From Anaerofustis stercorihominis (GTDB lineage Bacteria > Bacillota > Clostridia > Eubacteriales > Anaerofustaceae): a stretch of DNA of 37,515 bases. The DNA lies in NCBI GenBank assembly GCA_015058295.1, contig SVCP01000012.1, positions 1 to 37,515 of the forward strand, given 5' to 3'. Shown piece after piece: positions 6,550-18,784 of the stretch. Below the pieces are notes generated by a model that was given only the letters and a program-made list of their open reading frames with translations, was not told the origin of the DNA and searched no databases. How positions within the stretch are numbered: the stretch's first letter is position 1; every line of letters begins with the position of its first letter. A program made the translations under genes and the position numbers.

Positions 6550-9162
6550 ATGAAAAAGACGTTCAATGTTACAGGTATGACCTGCTCCGCATGCGTATCT
6601 CACGTTGAAAAGGCTGTAAAAAAAGTAGAAGGTGTGCAGAATGTATCCGTAAGTCTTCTCACAAACAGCATGAGCGTTGAGTATGATGAGTCTGTCGCAC
6701 AGGACAATATCATAATTTCTGCCGTAAACGAAGCTGGATATCACGCATCATCACAGGACAAAAACTCATCACAGCCTGCAAAAAGCGCAAATGACGAAGC
6801 CCTCGAGGAAATGAAGGGAATGAAAAAGAGACTGTGGATCTCATTCCCGACGCTTTTCGTTCTTATGTATATCGCCATGGGACACATGATGGGTCTTCCG
6901 GTACCGCATTTCTTCCACGGAAACGAAAATGCACTCACATTCGCCTTCACGCAGTTCCTTCTGGCGCTTGTTGTCGTATATGTGAACAGAAAATACTACG
7001 AAGTGGGATTCAAGACGCTATTCAAAGGCTCACCGAATATGGATACGCTTATTGCCATAGGCTCATCTTCTGCCATGATATACGGTATTTTCGCAATTTA
7101 CCGCATCGGCTACGGCCTCGGACACGGAGATATGCAGATCGTATCACACTATGCAATGAACCTGTATTACGAATCTGCGGCAATGATACTTGCCCTCATA
7201 ACATTCGGTAAATATCTCGAAGCAAAATCAAAATACCGCACATCCGAAGCCATCACTTCCCTCATGGAGCTTGCTCCCGCAAATGCTACCGTTGAAAGAG
7301 CAGGAAATGAAATAGTAATTCCCACAGCGGATATTGTGAAGGGCGATATAGTAATCATCCGCCCCGGTGAAAGACTTCCCGTAGACGGAGTTATCATCGA
7401 AGGATCTTCTTCCATCGACGCATCTGCTCTCAGCGGAGAAAGTATCCCTGTTGAAGTGGGGGTAGGGGACAATGTAAGTGCCGCAACAATCAACAAAAAC
7501 GGTACATTCAAGTTCCGTGCGGAAAAAGTCGGAGAAGACACCACCCTCGCTCAGATCATCAACCTCATGCAGGAAGCTGCAAGTTCAAAAGCACCTATAG
7601 CAAAGCTTGCGGATAAAATAAGTTCAATATTTGTTCCTGCGGTAATTGCAGTTGCGGCAGTGACATTCATCGTATGGACTTTCGCAGGCGAAGGATTTGA
7701 GTTTGCTCTCTCTGCGGCAATCTCCGTTCTCGTAATCTCATGCCCATGCGCACTTGGTCTTGCGACTCCCGTAGCGATCATGGTAGGTACAGGAGTCGGG
7801 GCACAGCACGGCATCCTCATCAAATCCGCAGAATCTCTCGAAAACGCACATCTCTCAACGGCAGTTGTTCTCGATAAAACAGGAACGATCACAAACGCAA
7901 AGCCGTCAGTTACGGATATTATCAGCGTGGGAATCAGCGAAAAGGAACTTCTCAGCCTTGCATATGCGGCGGAAGTATACTCTGAGCATCCTCTCGCAGA
8001 AGCTATCCTCACAAAAGCAAAAGAAGAAGGCTGTGACACTCTCTCAAGCGAAAGTTTCGAAGCAGTATCGGGCAGAGGCATCATTGCAATGGTCGGAGGC
8101 AAGGAAATTATCGCCGGCAACAGAAAGATGATGGATGAGCACAATATTTCTACAGACGAATATGTCTCATATGCGGAAAAGTTTGCTCAGGAAGGAAAAA
8201 CTCCTCTCTACTTCGCATACAACAACTCTCTCATCGGAATCATCGCCGCAAGAGACAACGCAAAAGACTCGAGCAAAGCGGCAATCGCAAGGCTTAAAGA
8301 GCTTGGCCTTCAGGTATACATGCTCACAGGAGACAATCTCCTTACGGCTAAAGCCATCGCAGACGAAGTGGGCATCACAAATGTAATCGCAGATGTCCTT
8401 CCGCAGGACAAAACGTCCGAAGTCAAAAAACTTCAGGCGCAGGGACACAAAGTCATCATGGTCGGAGACGGCATCAACGACGCACCTGCTCTTGCGCAGG
8501 CTGATACAGGTGTGGCTATCGGAGCAGGTACGGATATCGCAATCGAATCTGCAGACATCGTTCTCGTAAAGAGCGATCTCAGCGATGTCGTAACGGCAAT
8601 CGAACTGAGCAGGCAAGTAATCAAAAATATCAAGCAGAATCTCTTCTGGGCATTCTTCTACAACACCATCGGAATTCCCCTTGCGGCAGGAGTATTCTAT
8701 CCGTTCTTCGGAATCATGCTCAACCCGATGATTGGTTCTGCGGCAATGTCCATGAGCAGTGTGACGGTAGTTACAAACGCCCTCAGGCTCAAGAGATTTA
8801 AAGTAAGGGATTCTCACGGAAATGTCATCGACACAAAAGTTTCCGATGAACCGCTGAAAAAAGAAGAAGAGATCTTACAGATCGGACAGTGCATGGTAAA
8901 TTGTCCGACAGAAGATACAACAAATAATGAAGAAGGAGCAAATACAATGAAAAAAGTAATCACAGTTAACGGTATGAGCTGCAACCACTGCAAAATGGCA
9001 GTAGAAAAAGCCCTCAAAGCTATTGAAGGCGTTGAAGATGCAGTAGTAGATCTCGAAGCAAAAACAGCAACAGCTACACTTACAGCTGACGTAGCAGACG
9101 AAGTTCTCATGGACGCTATCAAAGCAAAAGACTTCGAACCGGTTAATGTAGTAACACTTTAA
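6550..9162 (+). CDS. copA: Cu(I)-exporting P1B-type ATPase with a C-terminal CopZ-like domain
   Basis: The 870-residue pump has an N-terminal heavy-metal domain (GMTCSAC, C12 and C15), then transmembrane helices, the actuator loop with SGES, the membrane metal site CPC (398-400), the phosphorylated D442 in DKTGT, TGDN, and the hinge GDGINDAPALAQAD. It exports Cu(I) at ATP cost. Unusually, the frame runs past the last membrane helices through an acidic linker into a second heavy-metal domain (GMSCNHC, C811 and C814) that looks like a whole CopZ chaperone. Most CopA proteins carry such domains only at the N-terminus. It is second in the csoR operon. Confidence 0.95.
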   Translation: MKKTFNVTGMTCSACVSHVEKAVKKVEGVQNVSVSLLTNSMSVEYDESVAQDNIIISAVNEAGYHASSQDKNSSQPAKSANDEALEEMKGMKKRLWISFPTLFVLMYIAMGHMMGLPVPHFFHGNENALTFAFTQFLLALVVVYVNRKYYEVGFKTLFKGSPNMDTLIAIGSSSAMIYGIFAIYRIGYGLGHGDMQIVSHYAMNLYYESAAMILALITFGKYLEAKSKYRTSEAITSLMELAPANATVERAGNEIVIPTADIVKGDIVIIRPGERLPVDGVIIEGSSSIDASALSGESIPVEVGVGDNVSAATINKNGTFKFRAEKVGEDTTLAQIINLMQEAASSKAPIAKLADKISSIFVPAVIAVAAVTFIVWTFAGEGFEFALSAAISVLVISCPCALGLATPVAIMVGTGVGAQHGILIKSAESLENAHLSTAVVLDKTGTITNAKPSVTDIISVGISEKELLSLAYAAEVYSEHPLAEAILTKAKEEGCDTLSSESFEAVSGRGIIAMVGGKEIIAGNRKMMDEHNISTDEYVSYAEKFAQEGKTPLYFAYNNSLIGIIAARDNAKDSSKAAIARLKELGLQVYMLTGDNLLTAKAIADEVGITNVIADVLPQDKTSEVKKLQAQGHKVIMVGDGINDAPALAQADTGVAIGAGTDIAIESADIVLVKSDLSDVVTAIELSRQVIKNIKQNLFWAFFYNTIGIPLAAGVFYPFFGIMLNPMIGSAAMSMSSVTVVTNALRLKRFKVRDSHGNVIDTKVSDEPLKKEEEILQIGQCMVNCPTEDTTNNEEGANTMKKVITVNGMSCNHCKMAVEKALKAIEGVEDAVVDLEAKTATATLTADVADEVLMDAIKAKDFEPVNVVTL
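8947..9162 (+). CDS. copZ: Possible separately translated CopZ chaperone (internal start in copA)
   Basis: Inside the copA frame AAGGAG (8933-8938) lies 8 nt before an ATG, giving a 71-residue product with the typical CopZ start MKKVITVNGMSCNHC and one beta-alpha-beta heavy-metal domain. It is in frame with copA (residue 800), so the message could yield both the fused pump and a free Cu(I) chaperone. The site is seen directly; its use is inferred. The linker before it may simply be a fused former copA-copZ junction. Confidence 0.55.
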   Translation: MKKVITVNGMSCNHCKMAVEKALKAIEGVEDAVVDLEAKTATATLTADVADEVLMDAIKAKDFEPVNVVTL

Positions 9163-9187
9163 TACTAATACGTGCATAAGCAAAAAA

Positions 9188-9207
9188 AACCGCAGACACC
9201 TGCGGTT
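9188..9207 (+). terminator. Terminator of csoR-copA
   Basis: An 8-bp stem (AACCGCAG with CTGCGGTT), a 4-nt loop and a long T-run follow the copA stop. A matching A-run upstream lets it work in both directions. Confidence 0.9.
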
Positions 9208-9345
9208 TTTTTTGTTTCGGGGAGAGTTTTGAGCCTGCATTTCGTTGCTATTGTTTTTTACTGTTCATACTTTCTTGTATTTAAGAAAGCACTTTCCCAC
9301 CGCCCCACCATTTAAATCAGGCTTGCGTATGCTTTTCCGGCAAAC

Positions 9346-9365
9346 TGTAATGCCTGCGCATTACA
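9346..9365. other. Intergenic hairpin in a gene-free stretch
   Basis: TGTAATGC and GCATTACA pair over a CTGC loop. It is in the gap 9214-9427 between the copA and tlpA terminators, where I see no gene. No T-run follows it. Confidence 0.3.
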
Positions 9366-9427
9366 CAAGCTGCCTGCGGCGGGTCAGACATCTGCGGTGA
9401 GAAATAACAGATCTCAAATCCACACAA

Positions 9428-9453
9428 AAGCACATACCCGCAGGTATGTGCTT
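9428..9453 (-). terminator. Terminator of ccdA-tlpA
   Basis: A perfect 10-bp stem (AAGCACATAC with GTATGTGCTT) with a 6-nt loop, then TTGTGTG on the minus strand, right after the tlpA stop codon. Confidence 0.75.
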
Positions 9454-10816: not shown

Positions 10817-12028
10817 TCACGGCTTCTGTTTCTCTGCCGAGGCTCTGTAATATTCATTGACAAGGCTCCTGTAACCGAGATTTTTTATATCACCGTATTT
10901 AAAATCGTACCTCGATTTTGTTCGCTTCCCCGTTGCCAGATACCGTATACATTCCTGCATATATTCGTCCGTTTTTCTGAGTGTCGTATCTGTGTTTATA
11001 ATGGGGAAAAACCACCTCGCCCATGTAAGTTCGCCGTATACCGGGTTGTCATAAAGCTTCGTGTTAAATCTTCTGACGAATGCCCTTGCGGCATATTCTC
11101 CCGGCAGATTTTTCCTTGCAGCCCAACGCGAGAGGGACCTTGTCTTTCTTCTCATCTTTGCCTTGAGCTTGCCGAAAGACACTTCGCTGATGTCTATTGT
11201 TCCTTCATGGTATGAAAATCCGAGGAATATCCACTTTTCGTGAGGACCGCTTACACAGCGCTTGTCACCATTTATTTTCAGACGGCGTCCGTAAAGAAAA
11301 TTATCTATTGTTTTTATGCTTTCCGAAAGCTCCGCTTCATCTTTTGCAAAAACAAGAATATCATCCGAATATCGCATATACGGGATTTTTCTGTCGGAAA
11401 ATATTTTATCAAGATCTCTCAGATATACATTTGCAAGAAAAGCTGATACAGGAACTCCGGCCATGATGCCTTTTTTGTCACAGACAATTTCTCCGTCATA
11501 CTCCACATACGGATTTGTAAGCAGGGAGCTGATAAATCCGAAAAATTCTCTGTCATCGGAGAAAATCATCTCAAGCTCAGGCAATAAGATATCAATGTCA
11601 ACCGAATTGAAGTAATCACTGATATCCGCTCTGTACACATATCTTTCATCAAGATCCTTTATGCGCAGAATATCTTCTACTGCTTTTTTCACACAGGAAC
11701 CTTTTCTGAAAGAATAAAGGTTCCTCTCAAACAGATAATCATAATCCCTCAGCAGAAACGACATCAACTTCAGCGCATGATTTTCCTCACTGTTGAATGT
11801 ATACACAGCTCTTTTTTTTCCTGCTGCCGACTTGTTTATAAGTTTTTTTCGGGGAAATGAAAAGCTCTGCCCGTTTTTTATCTTTTCCGCAACGGAAATA
11901 TATTTTTCCCTGTCGATAAATTCTCTCAGCCCGTCCAGATCCTTCTGGCTGATATTACCCGATTCCTTTTTGTGAAGAAAATATAATTCCCACACTTCTT
12001 TTTCGAACAACATGTCGATAATACTCAT
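10817..12028 (-). CDS. Stand-alone reverse transcriptase (not intron-encoded, not a canonical retron RT)
   Basis: A 403-residue RNA-directed DNA polymerase. Palm motifs are present: D135 in YRADISDYF and the YSDD box (220-223, RYSDDILVF). FRKG (107-110), GIMAGVPVSAFLAN (187-200, the place of the QGxxxSP motif) and FLGF (268-271) follow. The C-terminus is a basic thumb (KMRRKTRSLSRW). There is no maturase/HNH part and no group II intron nearby, and the retron NAxxH and VTG hallmarks are missing. The palm resembles group II-like and unknown-group RTs, some of which are phage-defence proteins; the role here is unknown. The ATG at 12028 is preferred because the 43-codon upstream extension would translate the structured region before it. 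Confidence 0.85.
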   Translation of the reverse strand: MSIIDMLFEKEVWELYFLHKKESGNISQKDLDGLREFIDREKYISVAEKIKNGQSFSFPRKKLINKSAAGKKRAVYTFNSEENHALKLMSFLLRDYDYLFERNLYSFRKGSCVKKAVEDILRIKDLDERYVYRADISDYFNSVDIDILLPELEMIFSDDREFFGFISSLLTNPYVEYDGEIVCDKKGIMAGVPVSAFLANVYLRDLDKIFSDRKIPYMRYSDDILVFAKDEAELSESIKTIDNFLYGRRLKINGDKRCVSGPHEKWIFLGFSYHEGTIDISEVSFGKLKAKMRRKTRSLSRWAARKNLPGEYAARAFVRRFNTKLYDNPVYGELTWARWFFPIINTDTTLRKTDEYMQECIRYLATGKRTKSRYDFKYGDIKNLGYRSLVNEYYRASAEKQKP

Positions 12029-12045
12029 AAATACACCAAATAAAA

Positions 12046-12175
12046 AAACAGAGAGAAATAATTTTAACATCGCAAATTTGCGATACAAAACCGTACACGG
12101 GCAGACTGCCTGCAAAGTCTGAATATCGTCCGTGCTGGGTTCTCCGCAGGCGCACAATGCGTTTCTCTCTGTTTT
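12046..12175 (-). ncRNA. Candidate structured RNA leading into the reverse transcriptase
   Basis: A perfect 14-bp inverted repeat closes this 130-nt segment: AAAACAGAGAGAAA at the 5' side of the minus-strand RNA and TTTCTCTCTGTTTT at the 3' side, then more T. Inside are a CGCA-TTG-TGCG hairpin abutting the outer stem, a two-part hairpin (CAGACT/AGTCTG with 8-nt loop, inside CACGG/CCGTG), and the palindrome ATCGCAAATTTGCGAT. It lies between a small unknown gene and the RT start 17 bp on. An outer stem around hairpins upstream of an RT recalls retron or DRT ncRNAs, but it could be a terminator-like leader. Confidence 0.5.
12069..12084. promoter_or_regulatory. Perfect 16-bp palindrome before the RT gene
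   Basis: ATCGCAAATTTGCGAT is fully symmetric, as for a dimeric regulator site. It lies 40 bp before the RT start and within the structured segment, so it may be an operator or an RNA stem. Confidence 0.4.
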
Positions 12176-12187
12176 AAAACATATATA

Positions 12188-12679
12188 TTATTTCAGATTA
12201 TCCCTGATGCGATCAAGAACATAGCTCTCTTCGTTTTTCATACCCTTATAAAAGCGTATGTACGGGATAGCTTTGTCGTCAAGCACTTTGTATGTGCCTC
12301 TGGCAATCATAGAGCGGTACTGATTCGTATTCATTACAAGAACAGCAAGCACCGGTCCGCTTCCATCCGAAAACAGATAGGATACCGGATAGCAACTCGG
12401 ATGAGCAGACGAATCAAATGTCTGCGCATGGACATTCGTCGCGATGGAATAACCAGGGAAGTTCGCTTCGGTTATAAGCGCTGCGAAATAGCGGTCCGAT
12501 GTATTGTATTCACCCACATAAACGGTCTGTGTGCCCTTTACCGGGAAAACATTCTCCGACGGACGGCAGACATCCTTGCCGGCATCATCTTTCTGCACAT
12601 TTTCCGCTACCTTCTCGATTAATTCCTTTACATCATCGAGTTTATCTATAGCACCTGCAAGTTTCTTAAAAAACCCCAT
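12188..12679 (-). CDS. Unknown 163-residue protein upstream of the RT
   Basis: Not recognised. The N-terminal 40 residues form an amphipathic, probably coiled helix (FFKKLAGAIDKLDDVKELIE). The rest looks like a small alpha/beta domain (TVYVGEYNTSDRYFAALI, then PVLAVLVMN, then IPYIRFYKG and a final helix). There is no signal peptide or membrane helix. GGAGG 7 nt before this ATG sets the start; an in-frame TTG two codons earlier is less likely. It is codirectional with the RT and separated from it only by the structured segment, so they may be cotranscribed. No function is assigned. Confidence 0.75.
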   Translation of the reverse strand: MGFFKKLAGAIDKLDDVKELIEKVAENVQKDDAGKDVCRPSENVFPVKGTQTVYVGEYNTSDRYFAALITEANFPGYSIATNVHAQTFDSSAHPSCYPVSYLFSDGSGPVLAVLVMNTNQYRSMIARGTYKVLDDKAIPYIRFYKGMKNEESYVLDRIRDNLK

Positions 12680-12793
12680 AGACAAGCCTCCTTATCCTCA
12701 ATCGGCCCCATATGCGTGCGGTTGTCCCCGCAATACATCCCACAGACCATATTTTTAACAAGTCTACATCTGTTTTCCTTTATACTTTGGTTC

Positions 12794-13887: not shown

Positions 13888-13923
13888 CCGGAATAACCGA
13901 TTGCATATCCGTTCATATTCCGG
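13888..13923 (+). promoter_or_regulatory. Leader hairpin before the surface-protein start
   Basis: CCGGAATA (13888-13895) can pair with TATTCCGG (13916-13923), whose end touches the GGGAGGAG ribosome site. Folding could limit translation; this is inferred. Confidence 0.35.
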
Positions 13924-13936
13924 AAGGGAGGAGTAT

Positions 13937-16900
13937 ATGAAAAAAATCAGATTAAACAAGATAACAGCATTGTTGCTGGCGGTAATGCTGTTATGTGCGG
14001 TAATACCATCATTCTCTTTTGCGGATGCTATTCCCACAATGAGCATTAAGTCTCCGTCGGACTATTACAAAGCAGGAGACACATTTACTGCAACGATCCG
14101 TGTATCAAATGCAGATTTCCGTTCCGTAGGCTTTTGCCTCACATTTGATGAAACGGTGGTAAATCTTGCCAACGGAGACACAAGTTTCTATAAATCCGCG
14201 ACAGCACCCCACGAAATCGCATCAGGAGTAGGTATACTTACACCTCTTGACAGCGGTGCAAGCAACAAAGACGGATACATAAAAGGCGTATGGGTTGTCA
14301 ATGCTGCAAACTCAACTTTTGAACCTTCCGAAGATGAAGAAGCAACCATTGACGGTGCAAAGCGCTCTGTTGAAGATTCCTCGAATACACTTGTAAAAAC
14401 AGGGGAAAAAGGCCTCATTATTGCTAAGATAGAATTCAAAGTGCTTAAAGACGGTGCTCCGGATCTTAAATTCAGCGCAATGGAAGATGATAACGAATTC
14501 TCTGAATACGGCTCATTCGTATATAATGCAACGGAAGGCAGCGATGCAACTCTTCCGCAGAACTACGAAACAAACGAAACGCCGGATAAAACACCATACC
14601 TTGATGCAAAAGCACTGAAAGAGGCTCTTGATAAGATCAATGATGACGGTGTTATAAACAACGACGATACAGAAACTGTTGCGGCACTCAGAGTTATACT
14701 CCCTCTCGTAAACGAAAGTGGCATTGCGAAGGAACTTGCTGCAGAATACCTGACAGAAGCCGAAAATATCGATAAAAACTTCGAACGTATGGCGGCAGAA
14801 ACTGTAATTGAACTTATTAACTCTATCGGTGATGTTGATCTTAATGATAAAAAGACCATTGATGATGCATATATGGCATATGATGATCTCAGCGATGCAC
14901 AGCAGGATGCGATTGCTGCAGAGTATGAGGTTCTTAAAAAAGCAAAGGCAACATACGATGATCTTGTAAAAGCCGTAAAAAATGCAGAAGATGCCATTGA
15001 TGACATCAAAGATATAGACACGGCAGAAGATGTTCATACCACAGGTTACGACAATGCAAAACAGCTTACGCAGAAAGCACAGGATGCTTATGACCTTCTT
15101 GAAACATCTGCACAGAAAGCGGAGGTTGAGTATGCTGAACTTGAAGATGCGAAGAATGCCGTAAAGGATTATGAAGATGCCCTTTCGAAATCTGAAGAAA
15201 CAGATAAACTTATCGAAGAGATCGGTATAGTAACACTTGACAGCGAAAATGCAATAAAAAAAGCTGAAGATGCTTATAATTCTCTCAACGACTTTGAGAA
15301 AAAACTTGTCACGAACTATGCAGCTCTCACAGAGGCAAGAGAATCATACAATACACTTGCTGCTCATAAAGCAAGTGCAGATGAAGTCACAAAGCAGGTC
15401 CTTGCTCTTGAAGAAGTAATCATCATCGACAGCGATGAAGCCGCAGATGCATATGCAGAACAGATCGAGAATGCAAAAGCGGTAATAGCAAGACTTCAGA
15501 ATGAAAACGAAGAAGCATATGCTATGCTTGACCTCGAAAAGCTTAACACTGTCATCGAAAACGCAGAGGACAAACTGTACTACTGGCAGACACAGTCAGA
15601 TGCTGACAAAGTTGAGGCTTCCATAAATGCTCTTCCCGATGTTGATGAACTTACTCTCGAAGATGAAGGTACTGTAAATGCTGTAAAGAATGCATATGCA
15701 CTGCTCGACGAAGAATCAAAAGCACAGATAGACAAAGATGCTGTGAAAAAACTCGAATCTGCTGCAGAAAAAATCGCAAAACTCGCGGCAGACAAGAAAA
15801 AATCTGATAAATTTGTTTCTGCAGTGGAAGAGCTGGGAGATGTTGAGTTCACAAATACATACCTCGGAAAACTGAACGCAGCAAAAGATGCGTATGATGC
15901 TATCGGTGACGATAAACTGTACAAAGACAATACAATAAAAGAATACAAGACCGTTCTTGATGAAAAATCAGACGCATATGAGGCCCTCCGTAATGAAGTC
16001 GATGATGTAATTGCAGATATTGATGCGCTGGCAGAGGTAAACACACCGGAGGATATTGTTGACGGTTCAAAAACTCTGATCGAAAAGGCAAGGGCAGCTT
16101 ATAACGGACTCGATGAAAACCAGAAGAATGCTGTCACCAATTATAATCAGCTTCAGGAAGCTGAAACCGCTCTGGCAGAATATGAGAAAGCTGTAAAAGA
16201 TGCGGCTGATATAAGCAAGGTAATCAAAGCCATATCAGACACAGAAAAATATTCTGCAGAATGGGTAAGTGCGGTGGAAACTGCATGGAATGCTTACAAT
16301 AATGCAGGTGCATTTACAAAATCACTTGTTTCAGATGCAGATAAAGACATACTCACGGCACAAAAGGCAGAATATGACGGTTATTCTGTGAATATTGCGG
16401 CAGCAAAAACAGTGATCGATGCAATCGACGGTATCGGAAATATCGAATACATCACAAGCAGTGAATCACTGACAGCTGTAAGAAGTGCATATGATGCATT
16501 GAAGCCTGAACAGAAGGCTCTCGTAACAAACTACTCTGTACTCACTGCGGCAGAAGATACATACAAGGCTCTTGCAGACAAAGTGCAGACGGCAATCACA
16601 GCTATCGATGCAATAAAAGATATTGACAAGCCGGAAGATACCATCGGAAAGAAAGATCTTATCGTACAGGCAAACGTAGCATATGATGCTCTCACACAGA
16701 AGACACAGCAGGATGCGGTTGAGTACACTGAACTTGAAATTGCAAACAAAGCCCTCTCCGATTATGAATCAGCAGCTGCAAAAGCGGCAAATATCGATTC
16801 ACTTATTACAGCAATCGCGTCTTATACAACAAGAACAGCAGAATGGGCCGCAGCCATCGAAAAGGCAAATGCAGAACTCAAAGCTGTTGAAGGAACATAT

Positions 16901-18784
16901 GCGGAAACTCTCGTAACGAAAAAAGAAGAACTTAAAGCATATGATGACGATTTCGCAGCTTATATCGCAGATAAAGCAGCGGCGGAAAATGCGCAGGCAA
17001 AAATCGACGCGATCGGAACAGTAAAATACACAAAAGAATGTAAACAGCTCATTGATGAAGCGAGAATGGCATATGATGCCCTTTCAGACACACAAAAATC
17101 AATGCTCACAAATGCAGACGCACTTACAAACGCAGAAGATGCGTATGCAGGCCTTCATGCACAGCTTGCGGACGTTGCGGCGAAGCTCGAAGAAGTGAAA
17201 GGTATAGAAGATGCTGCGGACATCACTACAGAAAATATAATTCTCATCAATGATGCATCTGCTGCTTATGGCAATCTCTCAGATGAACTGAAAGAATCGA
17301 TTGACCCGTCTCTGGCAGAAGCGCTGACAAAAGCAAAAGCCGCACTTGACAACTACAACACATCTCTCGCAAACGTACAGGCGGCAAAAGATGCAATTGA
17401 TGCTATCACAGAAATAACCCTCTCATCCGAAGAAGCTATTCTCGATGCAGAAAGTAAAGTGCTTGCTCTTAATGAGTTCGAACAGACACTTCTCAATCCG
17501 GAATACAAAGAAAAGCTCGATTCACTCAGAGCTCAGTTTGACAAACTTACAAGAGACAATGCAGCGGCAGTTTCCGTTATCGATAAAGTCAACGGACTTG
17601 GTTCTGTAGTATACACGGAAGAATATCTTGAAAAGCTCACATTGGCGCAGACTGCATACGATGCACTTACAAACGAACAGAAAGCTCTCGTCGATGAGAC
17701 AAATGCCGACGAAACACTCGCTTCAGCAAAAGAAGAATATGACCTTCTCGAAAAGCAGGTAGAAGCTGCTCACGCACTTATTGAAGAGCTTCCTGAAGTC
17801 AAAAATATTACTCTTGATGACGAAGATGCAATCAAAGCTGTAAGAAAAGAAGTAAACAAGCTCACAAAAGAACAGCAGGTTGCTCTCAGCAATCTCGGAA
17901 AGCTCGTAGTTGCGGAAAACAGGATCACAAACCTCAAAGCGGCTGCTGAAGTTGAAAAAGAGATAGATGAACTTCCCGATGTGGCACTTTTCTCGAATGA
18001 AGAAGCTATCACAGCGGTAAAAGAGAAATTCGATGCTCTCACAGATGAACAGAAGGCTCTCGTCGCAAATGCAGACAAACTTCAAGCTCTTACAGATGCG
18101 CTTGAAGTAAACAAGGAAACTGTAAAAGCGTACATCGAAAACAACGAAAATGCTCTTCAGACAAAAGACGAGACAAATTATCTTAATGTAAACGGCACTC
18201 TCGAAGATTTCCTTACCGTACAGGATAAAGACGACATCGTAAACGGCAAAGCCGTAATCTACACTGTTATCGGAAAAGTAAAAGACGAAAAATCATACAC
18301 ACAGAAAGAATATGATGCTATCGTCAAAAAGCTTGCCCTTAATTTCGGCGAACAACCGGCAGATGAAATATTCGAAGTTATCATCACAAAGACAGTATCC
18401 GACATGGTGGCACCTGCCAGTGAATCGGCGGCACCGAAATCTGTTGTTGTTGACATGATTCCGGGAACGATAGAAGTTGAATTCATCATTCCCGAGCGTA
18501 TGTATACCAAAGATAAAGACATCACAAGGGAATTCTCAGGATTTGTTTCCGGAAAACGACTTACGGAAGGACAGCTCAGAGAATACACAGACCGAGTCGA
18601 AGATACGGACGAAAATGCAAACACAATCACATTCACTGCAGATGGTTCCGTAACTCTCATTCCGACATATACAGACACGATCAACCCCGTAACGGGAGAC
18701 ACTCTCGCAATCTACGGCGGAGCATTTGCGGTACTGGTCCTCGCAGTACTTCTCATCAACTTCAGAAGAAGAGCTGCTCAGTAA
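13937..18784 (+). CDS. Giant secreted repeat protein with cell-wall sorting signal
   Basis: A 1615-residue surface protein. It starts with a signal peptide (KITALLLAVMLLCAVIPSFSFADA). Residues about 30-220 resemble a cohesin-type beta fold (YYKAGDTFTATIRVSN, later GFCLTFDETVVNLANG). Residues about 287-1393 are some 17 helical modules of 60-70 residues, each with a core like AYDALTxEQKALVTNY. A 190-residue C-terminal region follows, then NPVTGD (from 1583), a membrane helix and RRR, a non-LPXTG sortase signal. It is highly acidic and Ala-rich. Likely role: a long stalk holding the N-terminal domain away from the wall, perhaps for adhesion or complex assembly. GGGAGGAG sets the ATG; a frame 12 codons longer lacks a ribosome site. 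No sortase is in the window. Confidence 0.88.
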   Translation: MKKIRLNKITALLLAVMLLCAVIPSFSFADAIPTMSIKSPSDYYKAGDTFTATIRVSNADFRSVGFCLTFDETVVNLANGDTSFYKSATAPHEIASGVGILTPLDSGASNKDGYIKGVWVVNAANSTFEPSEDEEATIDGAKRSVEDSSNTLVKTGEKGLIIAKIEFKVLKDGAPDLKFSAMEDDNEFSEYGSFVYNATEGSDATLPQNYETNETPDKTPYLDAKALKEALDKINDDGVINNDDTETVAALRVILPLVNESGIAKELAAEYLTEAENIDKNFERMAAETVIELINSIGDVDLNDKKTIDDAYMAYDDLSDAQQDAIAAEYEVLKKAKATYDDLVKAVKNAEDAIDDIKDIDTAEDVHTTGYDNAKQLTQKAQDAYDLLETSAQKAEVEYAELEDAKNAVKDYEDALSKSEETDKLIEEIGIVTLDSENAIKKAEDAYNSLNDFEKKLVTNYAALTEARESYNTLAAHKASADEVTKQVLALEEVIIIDSDEAADAYAEQIENAKAVIARLQNENEEAYAMLDLEKLNTVIENAEDKLYYWQTQSDADKVEASINALPDVDELTLEDEGTVNAVKNAYALLDEESKAQIDKDAVKKLESAAEKIAKLAADKKKSDKFVSAVEELGDVEFTNTYLGKLNAAKDAYDAIGDDKLYKDNTIKEYKTVLDEKSDAYEALRNEVDDVIADIDALAEVNTPEDIVDGSKTLIEKARAAYNGLDENQKNAVTNYNQLQEAETALAEYEKAVKDAADISKVIKAISDTEKYSAEWVSAVETAWNAYNNAGAFTKSLVSDADKDILTAQKAEYDGYSVNIAAAKTVIDAIDGIGNIEYITSSESLTAVRSAYDALKPEQKALVTNYSVLTAAEDTYKALADKVQTAITAIDAIKDIDKPEDTIGKKDLIVQANVAYDALTQKTQQDAVEYTELEIANKALSDYESAAAKAANIDSLITAIASYTTRTAEWAAAIEKANAELKAVEGTYAETLVTKKEELKAYDDDFAAYIADKAAAENAQAKIDAIGTVKYTKECKQLIDEARMAYDALSDTQKSMLTNADALTNAEDAYAGLHAQLADVAAKLEEVKGIEDAADITTENIILINDASAAYGNLSDELKESIDPSLAEALTKAKAALDNYNTSLANVQAAKDAIDAITEITLSSEEAILDAESKVLALNEFEQTLLNPEYKEKLDSLRAQFDKLTRDNAAAVSVIDKVNGLGSVVYTEEYLEKLTLAQTAYDALTNEQKALVDETNADETLASAKEEYDLLEKQVEAAHALIEELPEVKNITLDDEDAIKAVRKEVNKLTKEQQVALSNLGKLVVAENRITNLKAAAEVEKEIDELPDVALFSNEEAITAVKEKFDALTDEQKALVANADKLQALTDALEVNKETVKAYIENNENALQTKDETNYLNVNGTLEDFLTVQDKDDIVNGKAVIYTVIGKVKDEKSYTQKEYDAIVKKLALNFGEQPADEIFEVIITKTVSDMVAPASESAAPKSVVVDMIPGTIEVEFIIPERMYTKDKDITREFSGFVSGKRLTEGQLREYTDRVEDTDENANTITFTADGSVTLIPTYTDTINPVTGDTLAIYGGAFAVLVLAVLLINFRRRAAQ
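16010..17176 (+). repeat. Duplicated three-module block inside the surface protein
   Basis: Two consecutive blocks of 195 and 194 codons (16010-16594 and 16595-17176) share module order and landmarks. Each begins with an xIDAIxxID-PED type module, continues with a module containing AEWxxAxE, and ends with a module containing AYDAL. They read as a tandem duplication of three modules, now diverged at the DNA level. Confidence 0.6.

What the first reader, a model, noticed from the sequence alone, without database searches (positions are those of the whole stretch)
12046..12175. Nested-hairpin RNA closed by a perfect 14-bp stem directly before the RT
The outer arms, the abutting CGCA/TGCG hairpin, the two-part central hairpin and the 16-bp palindrome give a compact fold in 130 nt, just 17 bp from the RT start. 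RT defence systems and retrons use an upstream ncRNA as template or primer, so this may be the RNA partner of an undescribed RT system.
Basis: partly seen in the sequence, partly recalled or inferred. Interest (0 to 1): 0.8.

Follow-up and report, generated by a model that had tools for sequence, protein, structure and literature searches.

The report
RT-5 RNA beside UG26 reverse transcriptase
The folded RNA just upstream of this bacterial reverse transcriptase is real and already listed in Rfam as 'RT-5'; comparing 92 relatives shows a pseudoknotted RNA inherited together with this one enzyme type even where the two genes lie kilobases apart, so it is very probably the enzyme's RNA partner, of unknown function.

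Summary
It lies on the minus strand, 12045-12175, upstream of the RT (ATG at 12028). The core is Rfam RF03026 'RT-5' (90 bits); the RT is PADLOC type UG26. So neither part is new, but I found no described function or RNA-enzyme link in the papers I could search. New evidence here: (1) in one family of 115 species, 79 have both RNA and RT, 1 has RNA only, 0 RT only, 35 neither; (2) in 28 species the RNA lies 1.2-9.5 kb from the RT or on another contig, often with its own promoter-like site, so it is a separate gene and not a leader; (3) comparative evidence for an outer stem and a 7-bp pseudoknot absent from the Rfam model as printed; (4) a conserved small protein (PADLOC RTasCOG2852) directly upstream in 32 of 92 loci, including this one; (5) all 23 species found of one genus carry the pair, 22 at the same locus, unusual for a defence gene. 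Best reading: an RNA partner acting in trans, probably the template for repeat cDNA in the manner of DRT9/DRT10/DRT3a. The partner role is well supported; the template role is inferred. A telomerase-like A-B-A' repeat is only suggestive, and not above chance in this window.

The parts
12045..12175 (-). Complete RNA element (RT-5 core plus outer stem P1), about 130 nt, probably a free-standing ncRNA
   Evidence: RF03026 12055-12155; outer stem swap test
12162..12175 (-). P1 5' arm of the outer stem (AAAACAGAGAGAAA)
12045..12058 (-). P1 3' arm of the outer stem (TTTCTCTCTGTTTT), followed by more T; probable 3' end of the RNA
12151..12161 (-). P2, small 5' hairpin CGCA/TGCG; a counterpart folds in 44 of 44 representatives
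12145..12151 (-). Pseudoknot 5' strand GCCUGCG
   Evidence: 97.9% paired, all 7 pairs with changes on both sides
12108..12114 (-). Pseudoknot 3' strand UGCAGGC, in the loop of the central hairpin
12089..12141 (-). P3, two-part central hairpin that presents the pseudoknot loop
   Evidence: 85.5% paired, 201 double-change cells against 53 in shuffles
12069..12084 (-). P4, 3' hairpin (the 16-nt palindrome ATCGCAAATTTGCGAT)
   Evidence: arms change together in relatives, seen by eye
12059..12068 (-). Linker GUUAAAAUUA between P4 and the outer stem; conserved UUYAA-like motif; candidate cDNA template by position
   Evidence: template role inferred from DRT9/DRT10/DRT3a (PMC12632851, PMC13174585)
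10817..12028 (-). UG26 reverse transcriptase, 403 aa, YSDD active site, GIMAGxP motif
12188..12685 (-). Neighbour protein (165 aa, or 163 aa from the ATG at 12679), PADLOC RTasCOG2852 family; C-terminal domain with a weak nuclease-like fold match, no conserved catalytic residues recognised
12187..12216 (-). Promoter-like site TTGATC-18-AATAAT just before the outer stem (not above chance on its own; position matches a conserved TATAAT in relatives)

Best explanation
The element is a discrete ncRNA of about 130 nt (family RT-5) that acts in trans as the dedicated partner of the UG26 reverse transcriptase. It is closed by an 11-14 bp outer stem and held by a pseudoknot between the segment after the first small hairpin and the loop of the central hairpin. 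The most likely mechanism is that the RT binds this RNA and repeatedly copies a short stretch in the linker between the 3' hairpin and the outer stem into repeat cDNA, as class 2 defence RTs (DRT9, DRT10, DRT3a) copy the equivalently placed loop of their RNAs; the neighbour protein would be an accessory effector or regulator. Shown by sequence comparison: obligate partnership, separate gene, fold. Inferred: binding, template use, repeat product, the role of the neighbour, and defence as the purpose. Rough odds: partner RNA 0.9; template 0.55; this linker as the template 0.4. The confidence below is for partner plus template.
For: Co-occurrence in family f46: RNA in 80 of 115 species, RT in 79; both 79, RNA only 1 (its contig ends 7.2 kb past the RNA), RT only 0. 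Of 14 strong UG26 RTs in a 391-genome class sample, 13 have an RT-5 hit over cut-off (11 within 150 nt of the RT, the others at 1.2 and 7.3 kb) and the 14th a 36-bit one 45 nt upstream, with a wholly different but complementary outer stem and pseudoknot. Same strand, RNA first, in every locus where both are seen on one contig. In 28 species the two genes are apart, 1.2-9.5 kb or on another contig, often with an opposite-strand gene after the RNA (22 loci), so a shared transcript is unlikely; exact TATAAT upstream in 44 of 60 loci without the neighbour gene. Covariation: pseudoknot, central hairpin, outer stem -20.2 own against -11.3 kcal/mol swapped, 5' hairpin. YxDD present in 26 of 26 RTs; nearest PADLOC types after UG26 are UG27, UG17 (=DRT10) and UG4; DRT9 and DRT2 among the fold matches. 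Class 2 DRTs use ncRNA templates placed in such a loop (PMC12632851, PMC13174585).
Against: No expression, binding or cDNA data. The A-B-A' repeat that marks DRT10 templates is only modestly enriched in the linker (repeat >=5 nt in 31% of distinct linkers against 10% of all 19-mers) and in this window is 3 nt, p about 0.9. Near-universal presence in one genus at a fixed locus is unlike a typical defence system. UG26's place in class 2 was not tested by a tree.
Confidence: 0.55

Rival explanations
1. The RNA is a partner of the RT but not a template: it is a structural cofactor, activator or inhibitor of the enzyme, which makes untemplated or otherwise templated DNA.
For: The most conserved nucleotides are the pseudoknot and central hairpin, not the linker; A-B-A' weak.
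Against: Characterised class 2 ncRNAs with similar placement are templates (PMC12632851, PMC13174585); the linker keeps a UUYAA-like motif in the lineages seen.
Confidence: 0.3
2. A cis-acting leader or attenuator that controls RT expression.
For: In the window it lies 16 nt before the RT start and ends in a stem plus T run.
Against: In 28 species it is 1.2-9.5 kb from the RT or on another contig and still conserved, often with an opposite-strand gene next to it.
Confidence: 0.05
3. A retron: the RNA is an msr-msd and the outer stem its a1/a2 pair.
For: RNA upstream of the RT with pairing ends.
Against: Retron model NF038233 scores 50 bits against a cut-off of 235; VTG in only 1 of 26 RTs and NAxxH in none; best profile is UG26 at E 2.7e-164.
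Confidence: 0.03
4. A stably domesticated RT-RNA pair with a non-defence function (housekeeping, stress or genome maintenance), at least in family f46. This concerns purpose and can be true together with the template mechanism.
For: All 23 species found of genus g493 carry it, 22 beside the same flanking gene (near trkA/trkH and DnaI/DnaD-like genes by my reading of the sequences), single copy; no other PADLOC defence hit among the eight flanking ORFs scanned in the window.
Against: Every characterised UG RT so far is implicated in phage defence (stated in PMC12632851); patchy outside that family (2 of 67 in the order); RT absent or truncated in some.
Confidence: 0.25

Closest known systems
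Rfam RF03026, RT-5 RNA
   Same: Window RNA is a full-length match, 90.3 bits against a gathering score of 45.7.
   Different: The Rfam model covers 104 nt and, as printed, lacks the outer stem, the 5' hairpin and the pseudoknot; no function is given in the output.
UG26 reverse transcriptase (PADLOC RT_UG26) with RTasCOG2852
   Same: RT E 2.7e-164; neighbour E 9.7e-7, its relatives to 4e-59.
   Different: PADLOC lists them as DRT parts; no paper found here describes a function or an RNA.
DRT10 (UG17; RT, ncRNA and SLATT protein; tandem-repeat cDNA)
   Same: Second-ranked UG type after UG26 itself; ncRNA upstream; multi-hairpin RNA with a linker after a stable hairpin and a closing stem (PMC12632851).
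   Different: No SLATT gene seen; A-B-A' not established; pseudoknot; RNA sometimes unlinked from the RT.
DRT9 (UG28)
   Same: Dedicated ncRNA; RT sequence and fold match to solved DRT9.
   Different: No conserved U-rich template; RT shorter (403 against about 499 aa).
DRT2 (UG2)
   Same: Pseudoknotted ncRNA next to the RT (PMC12039810 abstract); fold match 9c0i.
   Different: Different RT type, no sign of the DRT2 gene-building template.

Membership tests
Rfam RT-5 (RF03026) | Score above the curated gathering threshold | tested here: met
   90.3 against 45.7 bits, full length
UG26 RT | Best and near full-length match to the UG26 profile | tested here: met
   E 2.7e-164, residues 1-397 on profile positions 1-396 of 398; next best 1.3e-36
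Class 2 DRT with ncRNA template | Dedicated, co-occurring structured ncRNA | tested here: met
Class 2 DRT with ncRNA template | RT falls in the class 2 clade | tested here: inconclusive
   Profile and fold neighbours include UG17/DRT10, DRT9 and DRT2 but also group II RTs; no tree with reference RTs
Class 2 DRT with ncRNA template | cDNA copied from the ncRNA; phage defence | not testable with these tools
   needs experiments
DRT10 | A-B-A' template repeat after a stable stem-loop | tested here: inconclusive
   31% against 10% with repeat >=5 nt; window 3 nt, not significant
DRT10 | SLATT partner gene | tested here: not met
   No Pfam match for the upstream neighbour, whose family is RTasCOG2852 instead; the other flanking window ORFs scanned show DsbD, thioredoxin, SpoIIR and macro families or nothing
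Retron | Retron RT motifs NAxxH and VTG, retron model above cut-off | tested here: not met
Group II intron | Intron RNA (domain V) around the RT | tested here: not met
   No Rfam group II hit in the window

The most novel reading that the evidence does not exclude
UG26 with RT-5 is a telomerase-like or DRT-like machine whose RNA, like telomerase RNA, is a separate pseudoknotted gene, fixed as a core chromosomal gene in a bacterial genus and therefore possibly serving a function other than phage defence.
Probability: 0.2. Interest if true: 0.85.

Novelty: new variant of a known kind. Interest (0 to 1): 0.55.

Why it matters
It ties an orphan Rfam family to one RT type, supplies a more complete fold with a testable pseudoknot, and points to species where RNA and RT are unlinked, so partnership can be tested in trans. 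A UG-type RT that behaves like a core gene in one genus raises the question whether all such enzymes are defence systems.

Tried and rejected
+ strand reading of the RNA: Rfam matches only the minus strand. Leader or attenuator: rejected because the RNA persists when unlinked from the RT. Retron: motifs and model score fail. A-B-A' template: modest enrichment only; a first version with automatic segmentation was unusable and was replaced by the anchored one. Pseudoknot by duplex swapping was weak because the strands are nearly invariant across most lineages; column-wise counting settled it. L021/L081 (G292) was dropped as not UG26: weaker RT score, no RT-5, a weak group II signal. Viral contigs gave no relative; phage and plasmid records gave only matches under 60% identity (listed ones 23-28%). 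The main papers on RT-5 (Weinberg 2017) and UG types (Mestre 2022) are not held, so prior mention of the link cannot be excluded.

Full report
What is there. The 130-nt structure lies on the minus strand between a small ORF (12188-12685) and the RT (10817-12028), all three on the same strand. Its 14-bp outer arms are the only such pair in the window and do not arise in 40 shuffles; the fold is far more stable than shuffles. Rfam identifies the core as RT-5, RF03026. The RT is PADLOC type UG26 with an intact YSDD; AlphaFold gives a confident group II-like RT fold, with DRT9 and DRT2 among the solved matches.

Relatives. RT-5 was found in 2 of 67 genomes of the order and 2 of 399 drawn from the phylum, but in 80 of 115 species of another family of the class, f46. 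The UG26 profile on the same 115 genomes hits 79, all among the 80. The exception, G845, has a contig that ends 7.2 kb after the RNA, and relatives have the RT up to 9.5 kb away, so it may be an assembly gap. In a 391-genome class sample, 14 RTs match UG26 strongly; 13 have RT-5 over threshold, 11 of them within 150 nt of the RT, G259 at 1.2 kb and G149 at 7.3 kb. The 14th (G352) has a 36-bit hit whose outer stem UGCAAGGAAGA/UCUUCCUUGCA and pseudoknot CACUUGC/GCAAGUG are complementary though changed throughout (pseudoknot read by eye).

A separate gene. In 92 loci the RNA and RT are on the same strand, RNA first, wherever both lie on one contig. In 63 they are within 150 nt. In 17 they are 1.2-7.3 kb apart, and adds 7 at 7.7-9.5 kb and 4 on different contigs. 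In 22 loci a conserved opposite-strand gene lies after the RNA. Exact TATAAT 24-48 nt before the model start occurs in 44 of 60 loci without the upstream neighbour gene and 2 of 32 with it, as if the RNA has its own promoter when it has no operon. In the RT tree the separated loci fall in one clade of 17 with full support, three of whose members are adjacent.

Fold. On 87 distinct sequences, aligned without reference to the pseudoknot, its 7 pairs form in 97.9% of cells, all 7 show changes on both sides, and double-change cells number 34 against 5.0 in shuffles; sliding by 1-3 columns drops pairing to 29-47%. Related sequences inflate such counts, but independent types occur: GUCUGC/GCAGAC, ACCUGC/GCAGGU, GCUCGCA/UGCGAGC, CCUGA/UCAGG, UUCCUUC/GAAGGAA. 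The central hairpin is likewise supported, the outer stem by swapping arms between lineages, and the 5' hairpin folds in 44 of 44. Rfam's consensus line shows neither the outer stem nor the pseudoknot.

The neighbour. The upstream ORF has homologues directly upstream of the RNA in 32 of 92 loci, divergent to about 20% identity. PADLOC's RTasCOG2852 model matches 14 of 20; Pfam none. Its C-terminal domain is predicted well and its best, weak structural matches are McrC and TnsA (E 0.075), both nuclease-fold proteins by my knowledge, but only N149, Y153 and R157 besides M1 are invariant, so a catalytic role is doubtful. It is absent wherever RNA and RT are separated: RNA and RT are the core, the neighbour is accessory.

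Distribution. All 23 species listed for genus g493 carry the pair, and 22 share the same downstream neighbour, the exception being a short contig. That is stable vertical inheritance rather than the scatter expected of a defence island. Elsewhere it is patchy, and in one related genome (G017) neighbour and RNA remain while the RT is only the first ~145 residues.

Mechanism. Class 2 defence RTs examined so far copy a short loop of their ncRNA into repeat cDNA (PMC12632851, PMC13174585). The equivalent place here is the linker after the last hairpin and before the closing stem. It keeps a UUYAA-like motif, and some lineages have clear direct repeats (UGUUUC-AAAGC-UGUUUC; GAUUU-AAU-GAUUU; CUGUU-AAAUU-CUGUU), but overall enrichment is modest and in this window it is not above chance. 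I hold the template model as likely, not shown.

Known or new. The RNA and RT families are catalogued. I found no paper among those held describing UG26 function or linking it to RT-5, with the caveat that the two most relevant original papers are not held.

Noticed in passing
L082 (G017) 1-2417: Neighbour gene and RT-5 RNA intact, but the RT is only its first ~145 residues: apparent decay, or an assembly break.
   Followed up: partly
L069, L071, L083-L109: RNA and RT kilobases apart with unrelated, often opposite-strand genes between them, in one RT clade of family f46.
   Followed up: yes
L125-L151 (genus g493): RT-RNA pair at one fixed chromosomal site in 22 of 23 species; by my reading of the sequences near trkA/trkH upstream and AcpS and DnaI/DnaD-like genes downstream.
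   Followed up: partly
upstream of RNA in loci without the neighbour gene: Exact TATAAT in 44 of 60 loci lacking the neighbour but only 2 of 32 having it, suggesting a switch between operon and own promoter.
   Followed up: partly
window 12188-12685: RTasCOG2852-like protein: short N-terminal MGxFxKL motif, low-confidence linker, nuclease-like fold without recognised catalytic residues.
   Followed up: partly
window 13901-18784: 1627-aa protein made of many divergent repeats with an apparent secretion signal and C-terminal membrane anchor; not studied.
   Followed up: no
G831 and G832 RT genes: UG26 RT reading frames with one in-frame stop each (TAA, TAG); possible recent pseudogenes or sequence errors.
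   Followed up: no
L081 (G292) 8168-9430: RT matching the UG26 profile more weakly, without RT-5 and with a weak group II intron signal upstream; probably a group II-like RT.
   Followed up: partly
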